A stretch of DNA of 64,000 bases from contig OX596342.1 in assembly GCA_951394405.1 (NCBI GenBank), positions 2,170,001 to 2,234,000 of the forward strand. The letters run 5' to 3'. A program made the translations under genes and the position numbers. The DNA comes from Coprinellus micaceus. Lineage: Eukaryota; Basidiomycota; Agaricomycetes; Agaricales; Psathyrellaceae. The notes under the pieces are model-generated. The model was given only the letters and a program-made list of their open reading frames with translations, was not told the origin of the DNA and did no database searches. How positions within the stretch are numbered: the first letter of the stretch is position 1; the number at the start of each line of letters is the position of its first letter. Shown here piece by piece: positions 1 through 63,997 of the stretch.

Positions 1-1776
1 GAGACCGGGGATACGGGGGACGAGGTCGATGATGATGCTGAAGGTCAACCACATGTTGGCGAGACCGAACCAGGAGAAGAAGAGGGCGAAGGCGTTGAAG
101 AGGGCCTGGATGCAGAAGAAGAAGAGGCGGAAGACGTTGTGGCCGGACTGGAAGATCCTCCAGAAGTGGATCAAGGAGTAGACGGAGGCAGCGAACGAGC
201 CGTTGAGCCAGCGGCGGCGCTGGCCAATGAACTCGGCGCAGGTCTCGGGGCAGTCGGTTTCAGCCTTGGAGGCCTTGACATAGCCGAGAGTCCACTTCTC
301 ACCAGCCTTGGCGACGAGCTCGAAGCAGAGGATACGGTCCTCAGCCAAGAACATGTTCTTCTGGAAGATGGACATGCCGTTGATTCCCTTGGGGCCGAGA
401 CGAGCAGCGAGGGAGTGGTCACCGTGGAAGTACTGCTCGAGGGGGCGGCCCTGGATGGCGCGGTAGCGGTAAGCAGAGAAGGCACCGGGGAGGACAGAGA
501 CGTAGCCGAAGCTGCTCTCGAGGGGCTTGTCGAGGATGTTGGACATCTTGTACTCGAAGTTCTGGGCCGCAACGAGGGGGTTGAGGAGCTTCTTGCCGCC
601 AATGGTGTAGATCTCACCGCAGCAGCCACCGAGGTTGGCGTTGTTGTAGAAAGCCTCCCAGAGGTGGTAGATGGACTTGTAGGCGGGCTTGGTGCCAGCA
701 TCGATGAGGACGCAAATCTCGGGGTTGAGCTGCTTGCCGATGGCGTTGAAGATCCAGCGGTGGGAGTTGATCTTCTTCTGGTTCTTGGCCTTGACAATGA
801 GGATGATCTGAACGGGGACCAAGTTGGAGCCATCATCGGTCTCCTGGGGGAGAACGAGCTGGGGCTTGGCATCGACGGACAACTGAGTGGTATACTATTT
901 CCAAAGTTAGCATCAGCAGCATCTGATATAAAATTGTGCCAACATACCTCAAAGATGTGGGCCTCGGTGTCCTTGCCATCAACCGTCTTCTTCATGACAC
1001 CGTCCTGGTAGACACCGACGGTAGCGAGGAGGTCCAAAACGGACTTGTCCATGCACTCGAGACCGTCGACGACGAGGGCGACGGTGATCTTGTGCCAGGC
1101 GGGGATGCCCTCCTCGGCGGAGCCACGCCAGTACTTGGACTTCTTCGACTTGCAGATATCACGGATGTTGAGCATGATGTTGTGCAAGGTGCGGGAGTAG
1201 AGCATCTTGTCCTCGTTGTACGAGGTGACGGCGATCAAGAGCTCGGTCTCGCGGTTGTACATCCTGGTGCGGAGGTTCCAGCCGTTCTCGGGGGTGAAGT
1301 CATCGGGGTCGCAGGTGGCAGCGGTGTAGCGCATGTGCGAGAACTCGGTGGACTTGCCGATGGTGTACTTGACCTCCTGCGCATTGTGGATGGCAGTGGG
1401 GACACGGTACTCGGCGATGAAGTGGCCCTTGGTAAGCTTGACCTTGCGGGTCTCACCACGAGGCACAGCCTGGCGACGCCTCCAGCCAGAGTCCAAATCA
1501 ATGTTGGACGCCTGGTTCAGGTAGTTGAAGGGCGATTCCGGGAAGCTGTTGGCCTGCATGTTGGGCAAAGCGGGGAGGGGAGCGATGAAGTGAGGCGGCA
1601 TGGGCGCATACCTCTCTGCATGGCGAACACATCATTAATGTCTGGAAAAATACAAGCTGAAGAAGGGGGAACTCACTCTCATCGGCGAGACTGCTCTGCA
1701 GCTCATTATCGTAGACGGTCGCGTCCGAAGCGAAGGACTCAACGGACTGGGACTGGTAGACGTGTTGGTAAGGCAT
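1..1776 (-). CDS. Chitin synthase, division 1 (class I-III), partial
   Basis: This is a plasma-membrane processive glycosyltransferase that makes cell-wall chitin from UDP-GlcNAc. The start is the ATG at 1774-1776 (MPYQHVYQ); the GTG nine bases upstream is not needed. Exon 1 ends near 1672 at a GTGAGT donor and exon 2 resumes near 1613 (RYAPMPPH). A third exon follows an intron at about 895-950. Seen in order: the N-terminal division-1 signature ([14 protein letters not shown]), the catalytic core with DAGTKP, the AEDR motif, and the product-binding QRRRW motif near 250, then the first hydrophobic segments. The gene runs off the left edge, so the rest of the C-terminal membrane region is missing from the window. 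The N-terminal signature resembles class III more than class I or II, but the class is not settled here. Confidence 0.93.
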
Positions 1777-2548: not shown

Positions 2549-3921
2549 CTACGACCGACGTCCAATTACGCGTTCCGTCAGAGCCTCGAGTGCTGATTTC
2601 GCCTCGCTGTCGGGGAGAACCTGCAGGACCTCATTGGCTTTATCAGAGTACGCCTGTGCAAGCTCGCGAGTACGTTGAACGCCAGAAGATCGAAGGACAA
2701 TATCTCGAGCCTGTAAAATCATTACAGCATCAACATCAGAATGAGGAGAAGGCGACGTACCCTTTCGACATCACCGGCCTTCTCGAACTTGCGTTCAATC
2801 AACTCCCCCATCTCAGGGTACTCTTCCCAAGCATATAGTGCTGGTCCCGTGGTTAATCCCAGCTGAAGATCCGCGCCTCCAGGTTTACCAAGCGTGGCGG
2901 AGACATGTTCGTAGTCGAGCACGTCGTCCACAAGCTGGAACGCAATACCGATGTTCCTCCCGTACGCATAGGCCATCTCCTTCCACACATCCCCGTCTTT
3001 GCACCCTCCGAGCACGACAGCAGAGCGCGCACCCTTGGCCATAAGACTCGCGGTCTTGAGGTATGTCTTGTGCAGATAAATATTCCAGGCGCCCTGTCTT
3101 CGCAGCCCCGACACATCTCCGGCTGGATCCAACTTCACGTCCTTCGTCTGGAGAATCTCACCCTCGACGAGGTTAGAGATGACGCTCGCAATCAGTTCCG
3201 TCACCTCCGGGTCCCCTAGACGGGACAGGGCAGCAGACGCGCGCCCCAGAACGAAGTTCCCGCCGAGCACGGCTAGCTTGTTGCCATAGGCAGCAGGAGC
3301 GGAGGGTGCCCCGCGCCTCAACGCTGATTGGTCGATGACGTCGTCGTGCAGGAGCGACGCGGTATGCAGCATTTCGACGATTTGTGCAAGCCGCCTCTGC
3401 GTTGGGAGAATACAGTGGTGTAGGGAGGGGGAAGATGTAGAGGGGGTTTCGTTGAAGGTAGGTACCGGTGGTCGGTGCCGCGTTGGAGGCTGGAGCATGA
3501 ACTGGACGTCGGAGAAGGAGCTGGTCTTTCCAGGCATGTTGGGATTCCAGTCGTTCAACACATCTGGCCGCGACAGTGGAAGGTCGAGCTCGGATGCTCG
3601 TCCACCTGCGCCTTCCCGTTCTGCTTCCCAAAGCTTTCGTTGCCAATTGGATCCCAATCCGTTCGTAGCTTGCGACAGAAGCAAGACGATGACTGGTCGG
3701 ACTTGTTTTGAAGGGTGAAGGAAGTAGTAGTTGGCGATTTCGGCGAGAGCTGGGTGGCCAGAACCCAGCATTGACAGCAAAGAAGACCGGACTTCAGCCA
3801 ACTGAGGAGAAATGAGCTTGAAGGGGTCTGCTTTTGGCTGTGTGCTGGCCGTCGTACTGCTCCACCGCGCTCGACACCCAGAGAGCCGCAGCCTCTTCAC
3901 AGCTCGTGAACAGGTATACAT
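2549..3921 (-). CDS. COQ1: Polyprenyl (hexaprenyl/decaprenyl) diphosphate synthase, mitochondrial
   Basis: Makes the long isoprenoid tail of ubiquinone by repeated addition of isopentenyl diphosphate, in the mitochondrial matrix. The spliced product is 440 residues. It starts with a basic, Arg-rich leader (first ~25 residues) that fits a mitochondrial presequence. The two Asp-rich metal-binding motifs of trans-prenyltransferases are intact: DDVID at about 193-197 and DDVLD at about 332-336. HLxxxxK-type motifs (LHKTYLKTASL) lie between them. One intron is clear at 2711-2760; removing it joins GDVER to ARDIVLRS in frame and gives the normal C-terminal helix ending at TAG 2549-2551. A Ser/Pro-rich insert at 150-170 is usual for fungal copies. 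Chain length cannot be told from this reading. Confidence 0.95.
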
Positions 3922-17567: not shown

Positions 17568-17640
17568 GGTTCAATGGTCTAGTGGTTATGATCTCTGTCT
17601 TACACACAGATGGTCTCCGGTTCGAACCCGGATTGAACCA
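17568..17640 (+). tRNA. tRNA-Val (UAC anticodon)
   Basis: A 73-nt cloverleaf: acceptor GGTTCAA pairs with TTGAACC at 17633-17639, with A as discriminator; anticodon stem TCTGT/ACAGA with loop CTTACAC gives anticodon TAC; the T arm carries GGTTCGAACCC. No intron and no encoded CCA. It reads valine codon GUA. Confidence 0.93.
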
Positions 17641-36936: not shown

Positions 36937-39900
36937 ATGTCTTCGCAACACTATTGCCAACATTGCGGCCGTGGCCCTTTCGATACAGAGCGCGGGATTG
37001 AACATCACGTCGCCAAAGTCAAAGCATGCCGAGATGCTGCCCACGAAGCCTTTCGAAGGCTGGCAGAAGCGATCTCCGAAGACGCTGGGAAACAGACAGG
37101 ATCCGAGGCCGACGCGCCAGAGCCTGAGCGTGAACACGACTTCGAGTTTCCCGAGGGCACATTCGAGTTTGAAGACACATACAGTGGGGAGGTGCCGTGG
37201 GACACAGACCATCCTGCTCCTTGCCAAACGAGGGAGAGCCAACCCGGTGATCAGGACGACATCAGGGAGGAGCGGCCAGAGCCCAAACCCAACTGCATGT
37301 ATGTCAGGGAGTTCCCAGAAGCGGCGGGGACAACCTATGGAACAGGGAGACCAGATTACGATGACATTCGCAAAGGTTTGCGAAAGGAGGAACGTCCTTG
37401 GGGTCCGTTTGAGGACCTCGATGAGTTTGAACTGGGGGAATGGCTCCTAGATAACGTCGGTCAAAAAAACACTGACAAGTTTTTGAAGTTACCAATCGTA
37501 CGTATACCGCAATCTCCAAACAATTCATTAACCCAAAGCGCCCCTCTAGACGCGAAATCGATGCGCCCCATCCTTCAAATCGAACAAGGACTTTTTAAAA
37601 TGTGTCGATTCATTACCAACGCACAGCAAGCCGTGGCGCTGCGACATCGTCAAGATCACTGGGGACAGACCCACCGAAGAAGGAGGATTTATGGTCGAAG
37701 AAGTGGAATTGTGGAGCCGGGACCCACTTGAGTGCATCGCGGAGCTCCTTGGTAATCCCGCTTTCAAGAACGACATGCGGTACGCACCTGAGCAGGTTTT
37801 CGAGGACGCAGAGGGGAAGGTACGGGTCTACGACGAGATGTGGACTGCGGACTGGTGGTGGGAGACTCAGGTAAGCGTCCTGCAAACCGTTTTTGATGAA
37901 GAGCTCACCCTACTGTTAGAAGAAGATTCCAAAGGGGGGAACAGTCTGCCCTTTCATCATCGGAACTGATAAGACCCAGCTTTCTGACCACAGTGGGGAC
38001 AAGACGGCATGGCCAGTCTATTTGACGACGGGGAATATCAGCAAGGAAGTCCGGCGCAAGGTCTCAGCACGTGCCACGGTGTTGCTGGGGTACGTACCTT
38101 GTGCAAAGCTCGATTGCTTCGATGAGAAGACTCGATCCGTAGCCGGCTACCAGCTTTTCCATCGCTGTCTGATCCAAATCCTCGAAAGGCTGGTGGACGC
38201 AGGCAAGAAAGGAGTCAAGATGCTGTGCAGCGACGGGTTGATTCGATTAATCTTCCCGATTCTGGCTGCGTACGTCGCCGACTTCCCCGAGCAGTGCTTG
38301 GTGGCCTGCTGCAAGGAGAGTCGCTGTCCCAAGTGCTATGTGGATGCGGACATGCGAGGGGAGTTTCTGGAACCAGGAGACGTCCGCAGGGAACCGCGAT
38401 TGCCAGATCGTACCCTCAGAATGCTCGACCACAAGAGCACAGGTCGGCGATTCGCAAACTTCGAGAAGGATGGACTGCGCCCGGTATTCAAGCCGTTTTG
38501 GAAGCACCTTCCGCATGCCGATATCTTCTCGTGCTTCACACCCGACATTCTCCACCAGTTGCACAAAGGCCTATTCAAGGACCACCTGGTCAAATGGGTC
38601 ACAGAAATTGCAGGCGCAAACGAGGTAGACTCACGTTTCCGAGCCATGCCTAACTACCCTGCACTTCGTCACTTCAAGAACGGCATATCGACAATTTCTC
38701 AATGGACGGGCACTGAGCACAAGGAAATGCAGCGTGTATTGATTGCGCTCCTGGCGGGTAGTGTGCAGGTCGAGGTAATGAAAGCGGCTGTCGCATTATT
38801 AGACTTCATCTACCTGGCGCGCCTTCGCAAACATACCTCAAATACCCTCCAACTCCTCGAAAATGCCTTGAAATCCTTCCATGACCACAAAGACATCTTC
38901 ATCCGTCTGGGCATCCGTGACGACTTCAACTTTCCAAAAATGCACCAATTACTCCACTACCCCGAATCCATTCGTTCTCGAGGATCCGCCGACGGGTACA
39001 ACACCGAATCCCCCGAGCGGCTTCACATCGACTACGCCAAGCGCGCTTATCGTGCGAGTAACAAGCGGGACTATGTGATCCAAATGACGAGGTGGCTCGG
39101 TCGACAGGAGGCCATGCTCCGGTTCCGCGACTACTTAGTTTGGGCTGGCGATGGTCGGAGGGAGAGGGAGGATGATGATGACGAGGACCAGGAGGATTAC
39201 GACAAAGAGGGGGATGGCGATGGTGGTGGTATAGTGTCAAGATCCGTAACTGATCTCAACGCCCCTGAGGGCGTGACTCAACTCCTGGACGCGAGTCGTG
39301 ATGGCAACACTCATCGAATTGCTGTGAAGCCTCCCTTTCCCCAACTCTCAGTTTCCACCATTACCTCGCGCTATGGCGCACAGGATTTCGTCTCAGCGCT
39401 CATTCGCCTTTTCCGTCGGGAGTGCCCACCCCCACAAGCAATCGTCCTCCCGAATAGTCGTGACCGCTTCGATGTCTACAAGCAGGTGTCCGTGGCGCAG
39501 CCCGACTGCGTCCCAACAGGACAAATCGGCGGCATCGCCAAGGTACGAGCTGTACCCTCATTACCCACCAAACGTGGTGGAAGGGACTCTATCCCCCATT
39601 TCGACACAGCGCTAGTGTGGGACCCTGAGGAGAAAGAAAGGAACGAATTCACGAGGGGGACATGGCTTGAAGGGGCGTACCTCCTGTTCGTAAATATGCA
39701 TTCTGTTGCTAACCATCCTCCAGGACTCAGAGTTGCTCAGATTCGAGCCATTTTCTCTGTCCCTGCTCATCTGCAGCAGGCAAGAATTCCCCGATTCCTT
39801 GCATATGTCGAGTGGTTCACACCATTCCGCGCTCCGGATGCCACAAATGGGCTGCGCTCCATATCTCGCTCGTACACCCGGGGTAATCCAACTCCAGGGG

Positions 39901-40088
39901 TTATTCCCCTGAACCATATCGTTGGAAACTGCCACCTGGTCCTGAGATTCAACACTCGCTGCCCTTCTAACTGGACGCATCAGAACGCTCTCGAGGAGTG
40001 CAAATCGTTTTACTTCAATCATTGGATTACTCTGACCCAGTACTATCAGCACCTCAAATCGAATGAGGACGGCATTGTAAATACATAG
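36937..40088 (+). CDS. Plavaka (KDZ) transposase, intact
   Basis: Three exons (36937-37497, 37550-37870, 37920-40088) join in frame to 1016 residues. It begins [20 protein letters not shown], with a C2H2-type zinc finger (C7, C10, H23). Family blocks follow: [45 protein letters not shown], the [13 protein letters not shown] motif that probably bears the first catalytic Asp, [66 protein letters not shown] and a C-terminal domain after an acidic linker. I recognise this as the Plavaka group of KDZ DNA transposons. No stop or frameshift was found, so it could be active. The upstream GTG at 36877 is out in favour of ATG 36937. Confidence 0.9.
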
Positions 40089-48610: not shown

Positions 48611-49792
48611 ATGGTCTCACTTAAAACCTCCTTTATTGCATTCGTCCTGGCCTTGCCCTCGCTTGTCGCTGCACAGAGCTGCCCTACCCTCCCTTCCAGC
48701 CTCACTCTCCGCGCCAACTCGAAGCTTCCTGATCCATTCACCTTCTTTGGTGGTACCAAGGTTACCACGAAGGACCAGTGGACATGTCGTAGCGAGGAAA
48801 TCAACCAACTCTTCCAACGTCTCGAGCTTGGGGAGCTCCCACCCAAACCCTCTTCCGTCACCGGTTCCCTCAACGGCAATTCGCTCAGCGTCAGCGTTAC
48901 GCACAACGGGAATAGCATCTCGTTCACGGCGTCCGTTAACCTACCCTCGGGCACTGGCAAGGTTCCCGTCATTATCGCCCTCGGTGGTGCCAGCATCCCC
49001 ATTCCATCCGGAGTGGGCACCATCAACTTCAACAACGACGACATCGCTGCACAGGCCAGCACGGGTAGCCGCGGTTCGGGCAAGTTCTACACCATCTACG
49101 GCAGGAGCCATTCCGCCGCTGCCACGACCGCTTGGGCTTGGGGTGTTGGTCGCATCATCGATGTTCTCGAATCGCTCCCCAACTCCCGCATCGACACCAC
49201 CAAGCTCGGTGTCACTGGCTGCTCTCGCAACGGGAAGGGCGCCATCATCATCGGTGCTTTGGAGAAGCGCATCGCTCTCACTATTCCCCAGGAGTCGGGC
49301 TCTGGAGGTGCTGCCTGCTGGCGTATCTCCGACGCCATGAAGTCGAGGGGTGTTAACGTCCAGACGGCGTCCCAGATCGTGACCGAGAACGTCTGGTTCT
49401 CCCCTCTCTTCAACCAGTACGTCAACCGCGTCAACGACCTCCCAATCGACCACCATCTTCTCGCCGCCATGGTTGCCCCGCGTGCCCTCTTTGTCATCGA
49501 CCACTCCGGGATCGACTGGCTCGGCCCCGAGTCCGTCTTCGGGTGCATGAAAACCGCAACGAAGGTCTACCAGGCATTGGGCATCCCTGATAGGATGGGT
49601 GTCTCACAGGTTGGCGGCCACAACCACTGCCAGTTCCCCAGCAGCCAAGGATCGGAACTCAATGCGTTCATCGACAAGTTCTTGAAGGGCAACACTGGCG
49701 CCAATACCAACGTTGTCAGGACCGACAAGGCCAACAATGCTGGATTCGTCGAGTCGAGCTGGGTTGACTGGACCACACCGACCCTCTCTTGA
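48611..49792 (+). CDS. 4-O-methyl-glucuronoyl methylesterase, CE15, no CBM
   Basis: An intronless gene of 393 residues. It has a signal peptide (MVSLKTSFIAFVLALPSLVAAQ, cut about residue 21) and one CE15 domain, so it is secreted. CE15 enzymes break the ester between lignin alcohols and the 4-O-methyl-glucuronic acid side chains of xylan. The catalytic triad is complete: Ser205 in GCSRNGKGA, Glu228 in PQESGSGG, His339 in HNHCQFP. By alignment to the known StGE2 structure from memory, the substrate-binding Lys (GKGA), Gln (VQTAS), Glu (TENVWF) and Trp (DWLGP) are all present. It is the simplest of three esterase genes in a row. About 60% or more of its residues look shared with the third gene. 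Confidence 0.95.
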   Translation: MVSLKTSFIAFVLALPSLVAAQSCPTLPSSLTLRANSKLPDPFTFFGGTKVTTKDQWTCRSEEINQLFQRLELGELPPKPSSVTGSLNGNSLSVSVTHNGNSISFTASVNLPSGTGKVPVIIALGGASIPIPSGVGTINFNNDDIAAQASTGSRGSGKFYTIYGRSHSAAATTAWAWGVGRIIDVLESLPNSRIDTTKLGVTGCSRNGKGAIIIGALEKRIALTIPQESGSGGAACWRISDAMKSRGVNVQTASQIVTENVWFSPLFNQYVNRVNDLPIDHHLLAAMVAPRALFVIDHSGIDWLGPESVFGCMKTATKVYQALGIPDRMGVSQVGGHNHCQFPSSQGSELNAFIDKFLKGNTGANTNVVRTDKANNAGFVESSWVDWTTPTLS

Positions 49793-51572: not shown

Positions 51573-54500
51573 ATGGGTTTCGTCAAGGGGCTCCTCACTA
51601 CTCTCTTCCTGGCTTTGCCAGTACTCGGTCAGAACTGCCGTGCCCCGGACAACCTCCCCAACTTTAACGTCGCGCGACTCAACGACCCCTTCTCCTTCGC
51701 TGACGGTAGACGTGTCACCAACCCCGCTGAATGGTACTGTCGTCGTGAGGAGCTCGTCGACCTTTTCCAACGATACGAGCTCGGTACACTCCCTGCACAA
51801 CCAGATGTCAGCGGATCCTTCGCGAATAACGCTTTGACCGTTACAGTTTCCCAGGGTGGCAACAGCATTTCCTTCGTCGCCAACATCACCTACCCCCAGA
51901 CCGGTGAGCAGGGTCCCTTCCCCGCCATCATTGCCGTCGGAGGTTCGTCCATCCCCCAGCCCGCCGGGGTCGCCCTCATTACCTTCAACAACGAGGCCAT
52001 CGCCTCCTCCTCCACCCGTGGATCCGGTGCCTTCTTCCAGCTCTACGGATCTGGTCACCCAGCTGGTGCGGTCGTGGCCTGGGCTTGGGCCGTTAGCCGT
52101 ATCATCGACGCCATCATCCCCAACCAGGCAGCTACCAGGATCGACTTTGGCAAGCTCGCGGTCACCGGATGCTCGACCAATGGTCGTGGCGCCCTCGTCG
52201 CTGGCGCTCTCGATCAGCGAATTGTTTTGACGATTCCTGTTGAGTCAGGTGCAGGTGGCGCTGGCTGCTGGCGTATCTCCGACGCCATAAGCAAGGCCGG
52301 TGTTGGCACACAGACCGCCGCGGAACTCGCCCAGACCCCTCTGTTCGCCACTTACTTCCCGTACTTCGCGAACAACACCAACACCCTCCCATTCGATCAC
52401 CATCTCCTCTCCGCCCTGGTCGCTCCCCGTGGTCTCCTCATTCTCGACAACACCGCGCTCAACTTCTTGGGACCCCAGTCCGTCTATGGTTGCTCAAAGT
52501 CCGCTAGCAAGGTCTTCGAAGCCCTCGACATCACGGATCGCCTTGGTCTCTCGCAAGTCAGCCATACCGACCACTGCCAGTTCCCAGGACAACAATACCC
52601 CGAATTCCAGGCGTTCATCAACAAGTTCTTGCGAGGCAACCTTGGAGAGAACACGGCGGTCTTCAAGACCGACTCCCCCAACCAGTCTGGATACCAGGAG
52701 GTCCAATGGGTTGACTGGACTGTTCCCAAGCTCAACGGCGGCGAGGCGCCCCCTCAACCCCCTAATCAAGGTCCTTGCGGTACCCTCCCTGCCACGATTC
52801 CCCTCCGCAGCCTGCCCCAGCTCCCCGACCCCTTCACTTTCCTCGACACCCGCGCTGTCCGCACTCGTGACGATTGGTTCTGCAGACGACAGGAGATCGG
52901 CTCGCTCTTCCAGGCCCTTGAGCTCGGTGTTATCCCTCCCAAGCCGGAATACGTCGGTGGCTCTCTCATCGGTACCAACCTCACGGTCGAAGCAAGGCAA
53001 AACGGGAAGTCCGTCTCGTTCTCCGCCCACGTGCAGCTCCCTTCTGGGAACGGCCCCTGGCCTGCGATCATCGCCCTTGGTGGCGCTAACATCCCCGTCC
53101 CTGCTGGCATCGCCGTTATCACCTTCCCCACCGACGATCTCGCGGCTCAGGTTGATACCACCAGTCGTGGCAAGGGTATCTTCTACGATCTCTATGGTGC
53201 TAGTCACAGTGCCTCTGCCTTGGCCGCTTGGACTTGGGGTGTTAGCCGAGCTATCGATGTTCTCCAGTCGCTCGAGAACTCGAAGATCGATACCGGAAGA
53301 CTCGCTGTCACTGGTTGCTCCAGGAACGGAAAGGGTGCCCTCGTCGTTGGTGCCTTCGAGCAGCGCATCTCCCTGACCATCCCTCAGGAGTCTGGTACTG
53401 GTGGTGCAGGATGCTGGCGTATTGCCGACTCCCTCTCTACCGCCGGCGTGCAGACCCAAACCGCGAGGTCCATCATCACCGAGAACGTCTGGTTCTCCAC
53501 TCTCTTCAACCAGTACGCCAGCCGTGTCAACGACCTCCCCATCGACCATCATCTCCTCGCTGCCATGGTTGCTCCCCGTGCTCTCTTCGTCATTGAGAAC
53601 ACTGGCTTCGACTGGCTCGGCCCTCGCTCCGTCTACGGATGCATGAAGACTGCCAACAAGGTCTTCCAGGCGCTCAACTACACCGACCGCATGGGCTTCT
53701 CCCAAGTCGGCGGCCACGCTCACTGCCAATTCCCTGACAGCCAGCGCAGCGAGCTCAACGCCTACCTCAATAAGTTCTTGCTCGGCGATCTCACCACCAA
53801 CACCAACATTCTCAGGACCGACAGTCCCAACGAGAACGGCTACGCTGAGGGCACATGGGTCAACTGGCAGATTCCTCGTCTTAGCAACGCGTCCGTCCCT
53901 CCTCCCGCTGGTAATGAATGCCCAGCTCTCGCCGAGGGCGTCGACTGGAAGGCCAACCCCTTCCTTCCCAACCCCTTCGTCTTCGTCGACAATGCTCGCT
54001 CCGTCTCCAACGCCAACGAGTGGTTCTGCCGTCGCGAGGAGATTAGTCAACTCTTCCAGCGCCATGAGCTCGGCACCATCCCCCCTCCTCCTAGCAACAT
54101 CACTGGCTCCGTCTCTGGCCCTATCCTCTCCGTCTACGTCGCTGACGGCGGTCGCAACATCACCTTCTACCCCACTATCACCTATCCTCCTGGTAACGGC
54201 ACTGGTCCCTTCCCTGCTCTCATCGCCGTCGGAGGCTCGAGCGTTCCCCAACCCGCAGACGTCGCCATCATCACCTTCTCTGCCGAGGAGATTGCTGCCA
54301 CCAGCGGCAACCGTGGACGTGGTCGCTTCTACGATCTCTACGGTCGTGACCACTCTGCGTCGGCTTTGTTGGCTCAGGCATGGGGTGTCAGCCGTATCAT
54401 CGACGCCGTCCAGAGGACTCCCTCTTCGAGGATCAACCCGGGCGCGATTGGTGTCACTGGGTGCTCCGGGAACGGTCGTGTCGCGCTCGTCGCTGGTGCC

Positions 54501-55085
54501 TTCGATCCTCGTATTTCTCTGACCATCCCTGTCGAGTCCGGAACCGGTGGCTCTGGATGTTGGCGTATCGCCGACAAGTTGGGCGCCAACGGAACCGTCA
54601 CCGCCTCCCAGCTCGTCGCTGAGGGACCCCTCCTCTCCACTGCCTTCACTCCCTACGCCGACTCCCCGCAGGATCTCCCCCTCGATCACCACATGCTCGC
54701 CGCCATGGTCGCCCCTCGTGGTCTCCTCATCCTCGACAACAGCGCCTTCTCATGGCTCGGTCCCCAGTCCGTCTACGGATGCATGAGGACCGCCAGCCGC
54801 GTCTTCGAGGCTCTCGGCTATGCTGATCGCATGGGTATCTCCCAGGTCGGCCACACCGACCACTGCCAGTTCCCCGGCCAGCAGTACCCCGAGTTCCAGT
54901 CGTACGTCAACAAGTTCTTGCGCGGCAACCAACAGCAGAACACCACCCTCATCAAGACCGACTCGCCCAACAACGCCGGCTTCGACGAGGACACCTGGAT
55001 CGACTGGATCGTGCCCCGCCTGTACACCGGCACCGCCCCTGGCCAGCCACCCAACCAGGGCAGGAAGGCTGGTATCGACCTCTAA
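51573..55085 (+). CDS. Three-domain glucuronoyl esterase (CE15-CE15-CE15)
   Basis: An intronless secreted protein of 1170 residues with a signal peptide (MGFVKGLLTTLFLALPVLG) and three full CE15 domains at about 20-390, 400-780 and 785-1155. Start: ATG 51573, as the upstream frame begins with TTG. Triads: domain 1 Ser201/Glu224/His334; domain 2 Ser583/Glu606/His717; domain 3 Ser965/Glu988/His1097. Domain 2 keeps the consensus GCSRNGKGA and the substrate Gln, Glu and Trp. Domain 1 has GCSTNGRGA, Phe for Trp (NFLGP), and lacks the Glu of TENVWF. Domain 3 has GCSGNGRVA and lacks the Gln. Domains 1 and 3 resemble each other (HTDHCQFPGQQYPEFQ). Linkers are Pro-rich (PPQPPNQG; VPPPAGNE), and the C-terminus ends with a similar linker, GQPPNQG. 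Fungal CE15 enzymes normally have one catalytic domain, with or without CBM1. Confidence 0.95.
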   Translation: MGFVKGLLTTLFLALPVLGQNCRAPDNLPNFNVARLNDPFSFADGRRVTNPAEWYCRREELVDLFQRYELGTLPAQPDVSGSFANNALTVTVSQGGNSISFVANITYPQTGEQGPFPAIIAVGGSSIPQPAGVALITFNNEAIASSSTRGSGAFFQLYGSGHPAGAVVAWAWAVSRIIDAIIPNQAATRIDFGKLAVTGCSTNGRGALVAGALDQRIVLTIPVESGAGGAGCWRISDAISKAGVGTQTAAELAQTPLFATYFPYFANNTNTLPFDHHLLSALVAPRGLLILDNTALNFLGPQSVYGCSKSASKVFEALDITDRLGLSQVSHTDHCQFPGQQYPEFQAFINKFLRGNLGENTAVFKTDSPNQSGYQEVQWVDWTVPKLNGGEAPPQPPNQGPCGTLPATIPLRSLPQLPDPFTFLDTRAVRTRDDWFCRRQEIGSLFQALELGVIPPKPEYVGGSLIGTNLTVEARQNGKSVSFSAHVQLPSGNGPWPAIIALGGANIPVPAGIAVITFPTDDLAAQVDTTSRGKGIFYDLYGASHSASALAAWTWGVSRAIDVLQSLENSKIDTGRLAVTGCSRNGKGALVVGAFEQRISLTIPQESGTGGAGCWRIADSLSTAGVQTQTARSIITENVWFSTLFNQYASRVNDLPIDHHLLAAMVAPRALFVIENTGFDWLGPRSVYGCMKTANKVFQALNYTDRMGFSQVGGHAHCQFPDSQRSELNAYLNKFLLGDLTTNTNILRTDSPNENGYAEGTWVNWQIPRLSNASVPPPAGNECPALAEGVDWKANPFLPNPFVFVDNARSVSNANEWFCRREEISQLFQRHELGTIPPPPSNITGSVSGPILSVYVADGGRNITFYPTITYPPGNGTGPFPALIAVGGSSVPQPADVAIITFSAEEIAATSGNRGRGRFYDLYGRDHSASALLAQAWGVSRIIDAVQRTPSSRINPGAIGVTGCSGNGRVALVAGAFDPRISLTIPVESGTGGSGCWRIADKLGANGTVTASQLVAEGPLLSTAFTPYADSPQDLPLDHHMLAAMVAPRGLLILDNSAFSWLGPQSVYGCMRTASRVFEALGYADRMGISQVGHTDHCQFPGQQYPEFQSYVNKFLRGNQQQNTTLIKTDSPNNAGFDEDTWIDWIVPRLYTGTAPGQPPNQGRKAGIDL

Positions 55086-57887: not shown

Positions 57888-59341
57888 ATGGCCCTCCTCA
57901 AACCTGCTTTCGTCGCCCTGGTCCTCGCCCTCGGCGCCGCCGCCCAACAGGGTGCCTACCAGCAATGTAAGCCACTTTTCGTCGATCAAAGCGCCCATAC
58001 CTCTCTAACATCGTTTCTTGACCCTTTTTTTCTTCAGGCGGAGGTCAAGGCTGGACTGGCGCTACTTCATGTGTCTCCGGATATGCCTGCCAGGCTCTAA
58101 ATTCATTCTACAGCCAATGCTTACCCGGGGCCGCTACGTCCACTGTCCCCAATACAACCCCAACCACACCCGCCCAGCCTGAGCCCACGCCCACCCAAAC
58201 CCAGCCTACCAACCCCGGGGGGCCAGTGAACTGCCAACCGCTCCCCGCGAGCCTCACCTTCAAGGCCAACACCAAGCTCCCCGACCCCTTCACCTTCTAC
58301 GACGGGCGCAAGGTCACCTCCAAGGCCGACTGGGAATGCAGGCGCGCCGAAATCTTCGAGCTCCTCCAGCGCACCGAGTTCGGAACGTTCCCACCCAAGC
58401 CCTCCTCCGTCACCGGCTCCCTGAGCGGCACCTCCCTGACTGTCAACGTCTCCCACGAGGGCAAGAGCATCTCCTTCTCCGCCACCGTCAGCATCCCCTC
58501 GGGCAGCGGCAACGTCCCCGCCCTCATCGCCCTCGCCGGCTCCAGTCTCCCCGCCCTCTCCGGCGTCGCCAGCATCAACTTCAACAACGACGACATCGCT
58601 GCGCAGGCGAACACCGGCAGCCGTGGAAACGGCAAGTTCTACACCCTCTACGGGCGCGACCACTCCGCGTCGGCCATGACCGCCTGGGCATGGGGCGTCT
58701 CCCGCATCATCGACGTCCTCGAGACCCTCCCCAACTCCCGCATCGACCTCAAGAAGCTCGCCATCACGGGGTGCTCTCGTAACGGCAAGGGCGCCATGAC
58801 CATCGGTGCCTTCGAGCCCCGTATCGCCTTGACCCTCCCCCAGGAGTCCGGCTCCGGAGGCGCCGCATGCTGGCGTCTCTCCGACGACATCCAGAAGAGC
58901 GGTACCAGCACGCAGACCGCGTCGCAGATCGTCACGGAGAACGTGTGGTTCAGCCCCCTCTTCAACCAGTACACGTCCCGCGTCAACGACCTCCCCACCG
59001 ACCACCACATGTTCGCCGCACTCATCGCACCCCGCGCGTTGCTCGTCATCGAGCACTCTGGTATCGACTGGCTCGGGCCCAAGTCAACCTGGGGCTGCAT
59101 GGTCACCGCGCGCAAGGTCTGGGAGGCGTTGGGCGTCGCTGACAACATGGGTGTCTCGTCTTATGGCGGCCACAACCATTGTCAGTTCCCCAGCTCGCAG
59201 AACGGCGATCTGACTGCATTTGTGAACAAGTTCTTGAAGGACCAGGGAGGGAACACCACCGTCGTCAAGACCGACAATTCCAACAGGTTCGGTTACCAGG
59301 AGTCCCAATGGGTCGACTGGACCACCCCTACGCTCTCGTAA
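57888..59341 (+). CDS. CBM1-linked glucuronoyl methylesterase (CE15)
   Basis: Two exons (57888-57966 and 58038-59341; 71-nt intron) give 460 residues. The signal peptide MALLKPAFVALVLALGAAAQ is followed by a cellulose-binding CBM1 at about 19-57 (QCGGQGWTG, CVSGYACQALNSFYSQCL), a Thr/Pro linker of about 35 residues, and a CE15 domain. The intron falls inside the CBM1 Cys codon (T|GC). The triad is Ser273, Glu296 and His407 in the consensus contexts GCSRNGKGA, PQESGSGG and HNHCQFP, and the Lys/Gln/Glu/Trp binding set is intact. It is the classic fungal form: the CBM holds the enzyme on cellulose while it cuts lignin-glucuronoxylan esters. It ends the row of three esterase genes on this strand and converges on the WD40 gene, 88 bp apart. 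Confidence 0.96.
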
Positions 59342-61905: not shown

Positions 61906-63997
61906 CTAAAGCAACGCAAGCTTCTCCAGGAGAACTGCCTTCCCCCTCGCCTCGCCAGCCTCGACCTCCTTCGTCGCCTCACCCCCAAACCACCTCTTCA
62001 CCGTCTCCCTCGCATCCAACACGTCCTCCTTCTCCCCCTCCTTCACAAGAGCCGCACACAGCTCCGCCACGACGAACGTCCCGTTCCTCTCTCCCTTCGT
62101 GCAGAAGCTGGTAACAACACCTTTGGTGAGCTGGTTCACGAAGCTCACAGCAAACGAGGCTGCGTCCCATTCAGGCGAAGACTCGATACCTTCGGTCTTG
62201 CGGTTGAAGTGGCCTCCTTGGAGGAGGGTCTTGTAGATACGAGAGGTGTGGGCGAGGTCCATGGGGTGAGGGTCGGTTTTGTTTAGGGAGGGGTACGGGG
62301 AGGAGATGGCGGTGATGAGCGCCGAGATGGCTGCGGACTTGTCGCCCTCAGCGTACAGAATAACGTCGGTAACGACCAAACTAGCTCCGGGATCCCTGAT
62401 AAGCGTCCTCCCGCTCTCTTTGATCCACGTAATGAGACCCTCACTCGCCGACTTGCGAACCTCCGCCTCCCTACTCTCCGCCGACTTCTTACTCGTCCGC
62501 GCCCTCACCCCGTCCGTCTCCGCCAAGCTCGCAATCTGCGCAGGGGTAAAATGCCTCCTCGACCGTGGGCTGATGAGGTATAGCAGTGCCCTTCGCCCTT
62601 GAACAGACGTGTAGAGCTTCGGCGCGCAGTTGACGATCTCCGCCACGACGGACTTGGCGAGGAGCTTCGTGTCGTCGGTGACGTCGAGCGCGGTGAACAA
62701 CACGTTTTGCGCCTCGTCGTCCAGGCACATCCGCTCGATATGCGGCTTCATGACCTTGAGGATCTGTTTCCGGTCCTTCGCCGTCCCGTACGCCAGGAAC
62801 TCCCGCACAACCCGGCTCCCGTCCTTCGTGTGCACCATCTCCGCCAGCACCTCCTGGCACGTCTCGTATATCCCCCTCCGCATCTTCTCCTGCTCCTCCT
62901 CGGGGAGCGCCTCCAGCGCACTCAGGTACTCCCACAGCGCCCGGTGCACGATCGCGTGCGTGATGGCGCCTTTGTCCGGGTTGTTGAAGATGGTGGTGAG
63001 GTTTTCGTTCAGGGCGGAGAGCACGCGGCGTCTGCGCTCGATGTCCACGCCATCGAGGAACCCTGCTAACCCTTTCTTCGCCTTTTCCTTGTCCTCGGCG
63101 CTCCCGCCTGTCACCGTGAAGAGCGTCGCCTCCTTGCCGTAGAACTCGCGCAGCAAGATCGACCGCTCGTAGGCGTTGGCGTACAGCTCGAAGGCATCGG
63201 CGAGAACGGAGGTGGCTTCACGGTGCAGGAGCAGTCGGAGCACCTGGGGTTGGAGTTCGAGCAGGATAGATTGGCGATGGGTCGAACTGAGGCGGATGAG
63301 CTTCGTTACGAGGAACTACCAGAACGTCAGTCCACATCCACTGAAATAAAATAAATCGTACTCCGCACCTTGGAATACTTGTTCTGCGCCAACTCCTTGA
63401 ACTTGCCCTTCAACTCTGCCGCGATCTCGTCCCGGTCGGCCTGACTTCCGTACTTGACGATGCTCTGGACAATTCGGCTCGCGTCGTGCTTGAAGACGAT
63501 GTCCTTGACCTTGCCCCGGATAGCGGACAGCAGCTCCTTGACGTGCTTTTGACGCTCGGTCGAGGCGATGTTTTTCTGCCGCACTTGGGCCCAGATCTTC
63601 TTGGACTGGCTCAGCAGGTCGGAGTGGGGCTTGGAGGCTTTTCGTTGCTCGTGCAGGAGCTTTTGGGCTTGGTGGGACTCTTTGGCGGCTGGAAAGAGGT
63701 GAATATAAAATGATATGTGGAGAAAGAGGACGTACAATTGGGGTTTTTGGGTTGACCTTGGGGTTTCTCCTCGGCATCCTCCATCTCTACGTCGGACCAG
63801 TCTCCTCCCTCTCCCTCTACCTCCTCGAATTCATCCTCGTCCGATTCATTTGGTGTCGTGGTATCGAGAGAAGCTGTGACTGGTTTGCTCCTTTTCTTTT
63901 CGGGTTTTGAGGACGATTCTGTCTGCTGACGCTTCAATTTTGAAGGCCTTTTGTCGTCTGCCTTTCTTTTGAGACCTGGCTTCGCAGTATTCACCAT
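61906..63997 (-). CDS. PUF6: Pumilio-repeat protein PUF6 (PUM3-like, CPL domain)
   Basis: Three exons (63736-63997, 63369-63688, 61906-63315) give 663 residues. The N-terminus is basic then acidic (KRKADDKRPSKLKRQ; SDEDEFEEVEGEGGD), fitting a nucleolar protein. A KIWAQVRQKN motif starts the Puf region, followed by PUF repeats (IVFKHDASRIVQSIVKYGS; KYSKFLVTKLIR; MVHTKDGSRVVREFLAYG) and the C-terminal CPL domain (CAPKLYTSVQGRRALLYLISPRSRRHFTP). Yeast Puf6 works in 60S ribosome assembly and in ASH1 mRNA control; the assembly role is the likely one here. The gene is complete: the ATG lies at 63995-63997, three bases from the right edge, so its promoter is outside the window. Confidence 0.95.

What the first reader, a model, noticed from the sequence alone, without database searches (positions are those of the whole stretch)
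51573..55085. A single polypeptide with three glucuronoyl esterase (CE15) domains in tandem
One intronless frame encodes 1170 residues with a signal peptide and three complete CE15 domains, each with a Ser-Glu-His triad. Fungal CE15 enzymes I know of have one catalytic domain, sometimes with CBM1; multi-domain CE15 proteins are known from bacteria. A secreted three-headed esterase could cut several lignin-carbohydrate esters on one polymer or bind more tightly to the wall.
Basis: partly seen in the sequence, partly recalled or inferred. Interest (0 to 1): 0.88.

Follow-up and report, generated by a model that had tools for sequence, protein, structure and literature searches.

The report
Three-headed fungal esterase, two heads altered
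An inky-cap type mushroom makes one apparently secreted protein with three copies of a lignin-loosening esterase domain, but only the middle copy keeps the known catalytic and sugar-binding parts, and the flanking two belong to a re-tooled side branch of the family whose job is still unknown.

Summary
Window 51573-55085 (+) is one stop-free frame of 1170 residues with an apparent signal peptide and three CE15 (PF22244) domains, each with Ser, Glu and His of the triad. It is not unique: four other database proteins share the architecture at 79-96% identity, the three named ones from Psathyrellaceae mushrooms; phrase searches found no paper on it. 'Three esterases' is only partly supported. Only the middle domain has the CE15 signature GxSRxGK and the aligned glucuronate contacts. 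Domains 1 and 3 lack the oxyanion-hole Arg (Thr/Ser/Ala; Gly/Asp), have Arg for a substrate-binding Lys and Leu/Ile/Phe for a binding Trp, in 5 of 5 orthologs. In a 72-row tree built without those columns, all 26 Arg-less domains form one clade (100/99) and one loss of Arg suffices. Two-domain paralogs in that clade, one just outside this window, have Gly for the nucleophile Ser in 8 of 10 domains. Best reading: one ordinary glucuronoyl esterase carried between two re-tooled domains that probably bind or position the substrate. Function is inferred, untested.

The parts
51573..55085 (+). gene for the three-CE15-domain protein, one stop-free frame, 1170 aa (P0001)
51573..51632 (+). presumed signal peptide, residues 1-20
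   Evidence: sequence (hydrophobic start) and pLDDT under 50 for 1-20; inferred, no predictor run
51633..52739 (+). CE15 domain 1, residues 21-389: triad S201/E224/H334; Arg and Lys of the signature absent (T202, R205); L257 for Trp, F298 for Trp
52167..52187 (+). nucleophile elbow of domain 1, GCSTNGR (residues 199-205)
52740..52769 (+). Pro-rich linker 1, residues 390-399, low model confidence
52770..53888 (+). CE15 domain 2, residues 400-772: canonical, triad S583/E606/H717 plus R584, K587, E637, W640, W681
53313..53333 (+). nucleophile elbow of domain 2, GCSRNGK (residues 581-587)
53889..53912 (+). linker 2, residues 773-780, low model confidence
53913..55028 (+). CE15 domain 3, residues 781-1152: triad S965/E988/H1097; Arg and Lys absent (G966, R969); Leu for the binding Trp; W1061 kept
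54459..54479 (+). nucleophile elbow of domain 3, GCSGNGR (residues 963-969)
55029..55082 (+). C-terminal tail, residues 1153-1170 (17 of the 19 residues 1152-1170 invariant in 5 orthologs); resembles linker 1
48611..49792 (+). neighbouring single-domain canonical CE15 gene (GCSRNGK), stop-free frame
58022..59341 (+). neighbouring CBM1-CE15 gene (GCSRNGK), main exon; 5' end lies upstream and is not resolved here

Best explanation
The gene encodes a secreted beads-on-a-string protein of three CE15 alpha/beta-hydrolase domains joined by short Pro-rich flexible linkers. Domain 2 is an ordinary fungal (CE15-B type) glucuronoyl esterase that would cut 4-O-methyl-glucuronoyl esters between xylan and lignin. 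Domains 1 and 3 come from a separate CE15 branch, whose named members here are all Psathyrellaceae, that lost the oxyanion-hole Arg once and changed the glucuronate pocket. I think they now mainly bind or position glucuronoxylan or lignin-carbohydrate material for domain 2, in place of a CBM1, with little or no ordinary glucuronoyl-esterase turnover. Shown: architecture, residues, conservation, tree, predicted fold. Inferred: secretion, activity of domain 2, low activity and binding role of domains 1 and 3.
For: Residue table: domain 2 has S,R,K,E,Q,E,W,W,H at CuGE positions 270, 271, 274, 293, 316, 324, 327, 368, 404 in 5 of 5 orthologs; domains 1 and 3 lack R271, K274 and W327 in 5 of 5. GxSRxGK is called the unifying CE15 feature, and in CuGE the Arg alone builds the oxyanion hole (PMC7039992, passages); Arg to Ala in OtCE15A cuts kcat over 80-fold (PMC8933493, section 13); the Lys and Trp contact the glucuronoyl unit (PMC10233622, section 3). 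All 26 Arg-less domains in the 72-row tree form one clade, 100/99, with the trait columns removed; fewest changes for Arg = 1. The three domains of the five orthologs as one clade is rejected, p-AU 1e-4. In five two-domain proteins of the same clade 8 of 10 domains have Gly for the nucleophile Ser; in the one pair compared (own two-domain gene against unnamed P0008) the distances, 0.27 and 0.34, are like those of two canonical singles, 0.28 and 0.51, so loss of the nucleophile did not bring evident loss of constraint. Three folded domains (most blocks pLDDT 80-95), linkers under 50, pTM 0.43. No CBM1 match in this protein.
Against: The triad is invariant in domains 1 and 3 of 5 orthologs, which a purely binding domain need not keep. 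An Arg-less CE15, PrCE15 with Tyr at that site, is active (apparent kcat 22 per s on benzyl glucuronate; PMC11345330, passages), and 46 of 272 full domains have Tyr or Phe there, so Arg is not indispensable. No binding or activity data were found for any of these proteins. LfCE15C, with full catalytic machinery, showed no activity on model substrates (PMC10233622), so residue tables predict activity poorly, domain 2 included.
Confidence: 0.5

Rival explanations
1. Domains 1 and 3 are active esterases with changed specificity: a different uronate, decorated glucuronate or another ester, using a main-chain oxyanion hole.
For: Triad, all 18 Cys and the new Arg at the K274 site are invariant in 5 of 5 orthologs; domain 3 keeps W368 in 5 and E324 in 4 of 5; Tyr-for-Arg PrCE15 is active (passages of PMC11345330); LfCE15C's authors argue for rare-xylan specificity from a changed pocket.
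Against: The residue after Ser is small and variable in domain 1 (T,S,S,A,A), not a conserved replacement; several glucuronate contacts change together; two-domain proteins of the same clade lost the Ser in 8 of 10 domains.
Confidence: 0.3
2. One reading: all three domains are working glucuronoyl esterases and the gain is multivalency.
For: Triads present in all three; all three conserved (identity to the three more distant orthologs 77-79%, 77-86% and 80-85%).
Against: Signature Arg and Lys missing in domains 1 and 3 of 5 of 5 orthologs; Arg to Ala costs over 80-fold in OtCE15A.
Confidence: 0.13
3. Domains 1 and 3 are decaying duplicates without function.
For: Lost Arg, Lys and Trp; domain 1 evolves about twice as fast as domain 2 towards E. 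angulata (0.33 against 0.168) and both flanking domains faster towards C. aberdarensis (0.249 and 0.254 against 0.177).
Against: 237 of 370 and 260 of 368 residues invariant across five orthologs against 255 of 372 in domain 2; open frames kept; the dating in PMC10182949 (passages) puts C. micaceus and C. angulatus (now Ephemerocybe angulata) 181 million years apart.
Confidence: 0.04
4. Artefact: three neighbouring genes or an assembly error read as one.
For: Other CE15 genes sit 1.8 kb upstream and about 2.9 kb downstream.
Against: One open frame with conserved linkers, and proteins of 1169-1171 residues in four other records.
Confidence: 0.02

Closest known systems
CuGE (Cerrena unicolor), CE15-B glucuronoyl esterase, PDB 6RV8 and others
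   Same: fold, triad, active-site Cys pair; domain 2 keeps 11 of the 13 positions compared, differing at E320 (Ser) and the variable Y366 (Phe/Met)
   Different: one catalytic domain with a CBM1; here three CE15 domains, no CBM1 match, two of them without R271/K274/W327
Cip2 (Trichoderma reesei, 3PIC)
   Same: best PDB sequence match of each of the three domains searched alone and best fold match
   Different: one catalytic domain in the solved chain, with the full signature
LfCE15C (Lentithecium fluviatile, 8B48)
   Same: non-standard glucuronate pocket in a fungal CE15-B fold; second-best PDB match of domains 1 and 3
   Different: keeps Arg201, Lys204 and Trp257 (section 3 of PMC10233622), which domains 1 and 3 lack
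PrCE15 (Piromyces, 8TRX) and other Ser-Tyr/Phe CE15
   Same: no Arg after the nucleophile
   Different: aromatic replacement with Lys kept, and measurable activity for PrCE15 (passages of PMC11345330)
Two-CE15-domain proteins of the same clade (P0007-P0010 and the own-genome gene at G000:C9:2165482-2168022, minus)
   Same: both domains in the Arg-less clade
   Different: two domains, no canonical domain; Gly for the nucleophile in 8 of 10 domains; CBM1 over the Pfam cut-off in 4 of 5 (P0008, P0009, P0010, own; not P0007, a partial record)
Unnamed or bacterial two-CE15-domain proteins (P0012, P0013, P0014, P0016, P0017, P0019)
   Same: two CE15 domains in one chain; P0012 also pairs a canonical with an Arg-less domain
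   Different: Arg replaced by Tyr or Phe; P0016 and P0019 carry bacterial names, the others none

Membership tests
CE15 (Pfam PF22244, fungal glucuronoyl esterase) | profile match above the curated cut-off | tested here: met
   three stretches, 900.7 bits in all against cut-off 27; each domain alone 286.6-339.2 bits
CE15 (Pfam PF22244, fungal glucuronoyl esterase) | alpha/beta-hydrolase fold of CE15 | tested here: met
   AlphaFold2 model, three folded domains; Foldseek top matches Cip2 and CuGE, TM by target 0.92-0.97 (one alignment per chain, so the three domains were not ranked apart)
CE15 (Pfam PF22244, fungal glucuronoyl esterase) | Ser-Glu-His triad, CE15-B arrangement | tested here: met
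   all three domains, 5 of 5 orthologs
CE15 (Pfam PF22244, fungal glucuronoyl esterase) | signature GxSRxGK, domain 2 | tested here: met
   GCSRNGK, 5 of 5 orthologs
CE15 (Pfam PF22244, fungal glucuronoyl esterase) | signature GxSRxGK, domains 1 and 3 | tested here: not met
   GCS[TSA]NGR and GCS[GD]NGR; 0 of 10 domains have that Arg or Lys
CE15 (Pfam PF22244, fungal glucuronoyl esterase) | disulfide linking nucleophile strand and His loop | tested here: inconclusive
   Cys at CuGE 269 and 405 in all three domains and all 18 Cys invariant in 5 orthologs; the bond itself was not tested
Glucuronoyl esterase (EC 3.1.1.117), domain 2 | glucuronate-binding residues Q316, E324, W327, W368 (CuGE) | tested here: met
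   Q,E,W,W in 5 of 5
Glucuronoyl esterase (EC 3.1.1.117), domains 1 and 3 | the same binding residues | tested here: not met
   domain 1: Q, not E, L, F; domain 3: V/I, E or Q, L/I/F, W. I therefore do not call domains 1 and 3 glucuronoyl esterases
Glucuronoyl esterase (EC 3.1.1.117) | hydrolysis of glucuronoyl esters | not testable with these tools
   needs expression and assay

The most novel reading that the evidence does not exclude
Domains 1 and 3 are natural counterparts of the Arg-to-Ala esterase: they keep Ser, Glu and His, attack the glucuronoyl ester, but deacylate so slowly that the protein stays covalently bound to the xylan. The enzyme would then hold on to its polymer by two slow covalent anchors while the middle domain works nearby: an esterase domain turned into a covalent carbohydrate-binding module.
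Probability: 0.06. Interest if true: 0.82.

Novelty: new variant of a known kind. Interest (0 to 1): 0.5.

Why it matters
Fungal glucuronoyl esterases are treated as single catalytic domains with or without CBM1. A conserved three-domain form that pairs one canonical domain with two of a re-tooled branch, beside two-domain relatives that have mostly lost the nucleophile, gives a natural series from enzyme to presumed pseudoenzyme within one stretch of a chromosome. It allows a direct test of what the CE15 Arg, Lys and Trp do, and of whether a mushroom can use spent esterase domains as substrate-binding modules on lignin-carbohydrate material. It also warns that counting CE15 domains may overstate the number of glucuronoyl esterases in such genomes.

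Tried and rejected
Simple internal triplication of one domain: rejected by the tree and AU test (p 1e-4); domains 1 and 3 as one clade were not rejected (p 0.236), nor domain 2 with the canonical singles (p 0.306), and domains 2 and 3 together were borderline (p 0.072), so the order of fusion is open. These groups were partly chosen after seeing the tree. The C-terminal tail as a leftover linker: it resembles linker 1, but it is 17 of 19 invariant, so I do not call it a remnant. Codon-level selection tests on orthologs: not done, no DNA of the orthologs was at hand. Foldseek added only the expected CE15 matches. P0006 (Coprinopsis sp., 1184 aa, 52% identical) was first taken as an ortholog; all three of its domains lie in the Arg-less clade and its domain 3 has Met for Ser and Leu for His, so I treat it as a separate three-domain protein. 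Rfam at gathering threshold found only a tRNA in the window. Searches of papers for coprinoid CE15 listed nothing on this protein by title or abstract start.

Rows dropped: the 72-row tree leaves out 22 of the 94 rows: own_C2a, own_C2b, own_C9far, both P0012 domains, P0222, P0142, P0132, P0137 (long, distant or near-duplicate) and 13 thinned singles. In one search P0142 (Ser-Met) fell beside domain 1 and P0222 (Panaeolus, Ser-Ser, His lost) fell outside the Arg-less clade, so over all rows there is at least one further, separate loss in Agaricales. P0011, P0015, P0150 and P0161 were in neither tree (broken or partial models), nor were the bacterial-type Tyr/Phe domains except P0012.
Full report
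What is there. Window 51573-55085 (+) is one open frame of 1170 residues. It starts with a hydrophobic stretch that looks like a signal peptide (my reading, no predictor run) and holds three PF22244 domains. The domain borders are 20-389, 400-772 and 781-1152. AlphaFold2 with a 33-row alignment gives three folded domains (most blocks of ten residues at pLDDT 80-95) separated by stretches under 50 at 389-401 and 771-781, and pTM 0.43, so no fixed arrangement of the domains is predicted. Foldseek's best matches are Cip2 and CuGE.

Where it is. The window is G000:C9:2170001-2234000, part of a 50.3 Mb, 17-contig assembly. The closest protein is Coprinellus micaceus FA13DRAFT_839778, 96% over the full length; others are Ephemerocybe angulata 83%, Candolleomyces aberdarensis 82% and an unnamed record (source lgn, 4,756-base contig) 79%. 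All three named species are Psathyrellaceae, so the window is from a Coprinellus or near relative (inference). Three CE15 genes stand within 11 kb: a single-domain gene at 48611-49792, this gene, and a CBM1-CE15 gene at 58022-59341. Further off on the contig are a two-domain gene at C9:2165482-2168022 (minus), about 2 kb beyond the left edge of the window, and a single-domain gene at C9:2242048-2242752 (minus), 8 kb beyond the right edge. In E. angulata the three-domain protein, a two-domain protein and a CBM1-CE15 protein are each listed on a contig of 556,349 bases, and in C. aberdarensis the three-domain protein EST38_g2299 and a single-domain EST38_g2298 on one of 146,280; that these are the same contigs is inferred from equal lengths and numbering.

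Active sites. I aligned all domains to CuGE numbering. Domain 2 has S270, R271, K274, E293, Q316, E324, W327, W368, H404 and differs at E320 (Ser) and at the variable Y366 (Phe or Met). Domain 1 has S, then T/S/S/A/A in the five orthologs, R for K274, E, Q, no E324, L for W327, F for W368, H. Domain 3 has S, then G/G/G/D/G, R for K274, E, V/I for Q316, E (4) or Q (1) for E324, L/I/F for W327, W, H. The triads and all 18 Cys are invariant in the five. Published work calls GxSRxGK the unifying feature of CE15 and shows that in CuGE R271 alone forms the oxyanion hole (PMC7039992, passages). In OtCE15A R268A lowers kcat over 80-fold and the covalent intermediate accumulates (PMC8933493, section 13). 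The Lys contacts O3 and the Trp the ring of the glucuronoyl unit (PMC10233622, section 3). Against too strict a reading: PrCE15 has Tyr for the Arg and is active (PMC11345330, passages), and of 272 full-length domains compared here 194 have Arg and 46 Tyr or Phe. Those 272 come from the 120 best-listed hits of each of two searches plus own genes and references, so the shares are not family-wide.

Origin. After a further search with an Arg-less alignment, 31 of 292 full domains have a residue other than R, Y, F or W at that site. Of these 31, 24 are in multi-domain proteins (P0001-P0011 and the two-domain gene of this genome). Of the other 7, four (P0150, P0158, P0161, P0190) carry pieces of another CE15 domain at one end and look like fragments of multi-domain genes; P0142 and P0222 are single, and P0122 begins inside the domain. 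A 72-row maximum-likelihood tree, with eight active-site columns removed, puts all its 26 Arg-less domains in one clade at 100/99; domain 2 is outside, sister to it at 96/90; the fewest changes are 1 for Arg, 2 for W327, 3 for Ser, 4 for K274. P0222, from Panaeolus, was not in that tree and in the larger tree stood outside the clade: a separate loss. Holding domains 1, 2 and 3 of the five orthologs together is rejected (p-AU 0.0001), holding 1 and 3 together is not (0.236). So the protein is a mixture: a canonical domain between two domains of a separate branch. The same branch has made two-domain proteins in which 8 of 10 domains have Gly for the nucleophile (P0007-P0010 and own_2dom; P0011 left out as a broken model of a gene like P0008); 4 of these 5 carry a CBM1 match over the Pfam cut-off, P0009 only just. 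It has also made a separate three-domain protein in Coprinopsis sp. (P0006; also Psathyrellaceae) with no Arg in any of its domains.

Constraint. Identity of the window protein to the four orthologs is 96/78/79/77 for domain 1, 97/86/85/77 for domain 2 and 96/85/80/82 for domain 3. Distances on the tree from the window to E. angulata are 0.33, 0.168 and 0.193, against 0.281 for the CBM1-CE15 gene; to C. aberdarensis 0.249, 0.177 and 0.254, against 0.508 for the single-domain gene. The nucleophile-poor two-domain protein shows 0.271 and 0.344 to the unnamed P0008. Domain 1 is thus the fastest of the three towards E. angulata, but none looks like free decay. A published dating, which I did not test, sets C. 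micaceus and C. angulatus 181 million years apart (PMC10182949, passage); C. angulatus is now E. angulata.

How it may work. I take domain 2 as the glucuronoyl esterase and domains 1 and 3 as folded, constrained domains of changed chemistry that mainly bind or position the polymer; the protein has no CBM1 match. The kept triad leaves a serious rival, a different ester, at 0.3. The boldest reading is that domains 1 and 3 form a long-lived covalent glucuronoyl intermediate, as the OtCE15A R268A variant does, and so act as covalent anchors; nothing here tests it.

Known or not. Two-CE15-domain proteins from bacteria are in the databases. For fungi the review PMC10313548 (abstract, sections 5 and 6) names CBM1 and two GH10 fusions. 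A search for six phrases such as 'three CE15 domains' and 'tandem CE15' found 0 papers; searches on CE15 with tandem or multidomain, Coprinellus with CE15, coprinoid genera with glucuronoyl esterase, multicatalytic fungal esterases and recent CE15 papers listed none whose title or abstract start describes it. The library lacks most subscription papers, so this is weak evidence of absence. The proteins themselves are public, annotated as hypothetical or as glucuronate-lignin esterase.

Noticed in passing
G000:C9:2165482-2168022, minus strand (L014), about 2 kb left of window base 1: Two-domain CE15 frame with a CBM1 match at its start in which both domains have Gly for the nucleophile Ser (GCGPNGR, GCGANGR): a presumed pseudoenzyme with relatives P0009 and P0010.
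   Followed up: partly
G000:C9:2388153-2388857, minus strand (L011): A further CE15 gene with Tyr for the nucleophile Ser (GCYRDGK) and Leu for the His, on a long branch.
   Followed up: no
P0012 (unnamed jgi record, 797 aa): A two-CE15-domain protein that also pairs a canonical domain (GCSRNGK) with an Arg-less one (GCSFAGK): a possible parallel case outside this clade.
   Followed up: no
window 38022-40085 (+): Frame matching Plavaka transposase (PF18759, E 7.7e-71), between the two-domain gene and the three-gene CE15 cluster.
   Followed up: no
window 52494-54692 (-): A 732-aa open frame antisense to the three-domain gene; taken as a by-product of GC-rich coding sequence, no homology search made.
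   Followed up: no
window 171-1601 (-), 2722-3921 (-), 61909-63243 (-), 17568-17640 (+): Chitin synthase, polyprenyl synthetase, CPL-domain protein and a tRNA: ordinary neighbours.
   Followed up: no
P0150, P0158, P0161, P0190: Database single-domain CE15 models that begin or end with pieces of another CE15 domain, so multi-CE15 genes in Coprinopsis and kin may be under-counted by broken gene models.
   Followed up: partly
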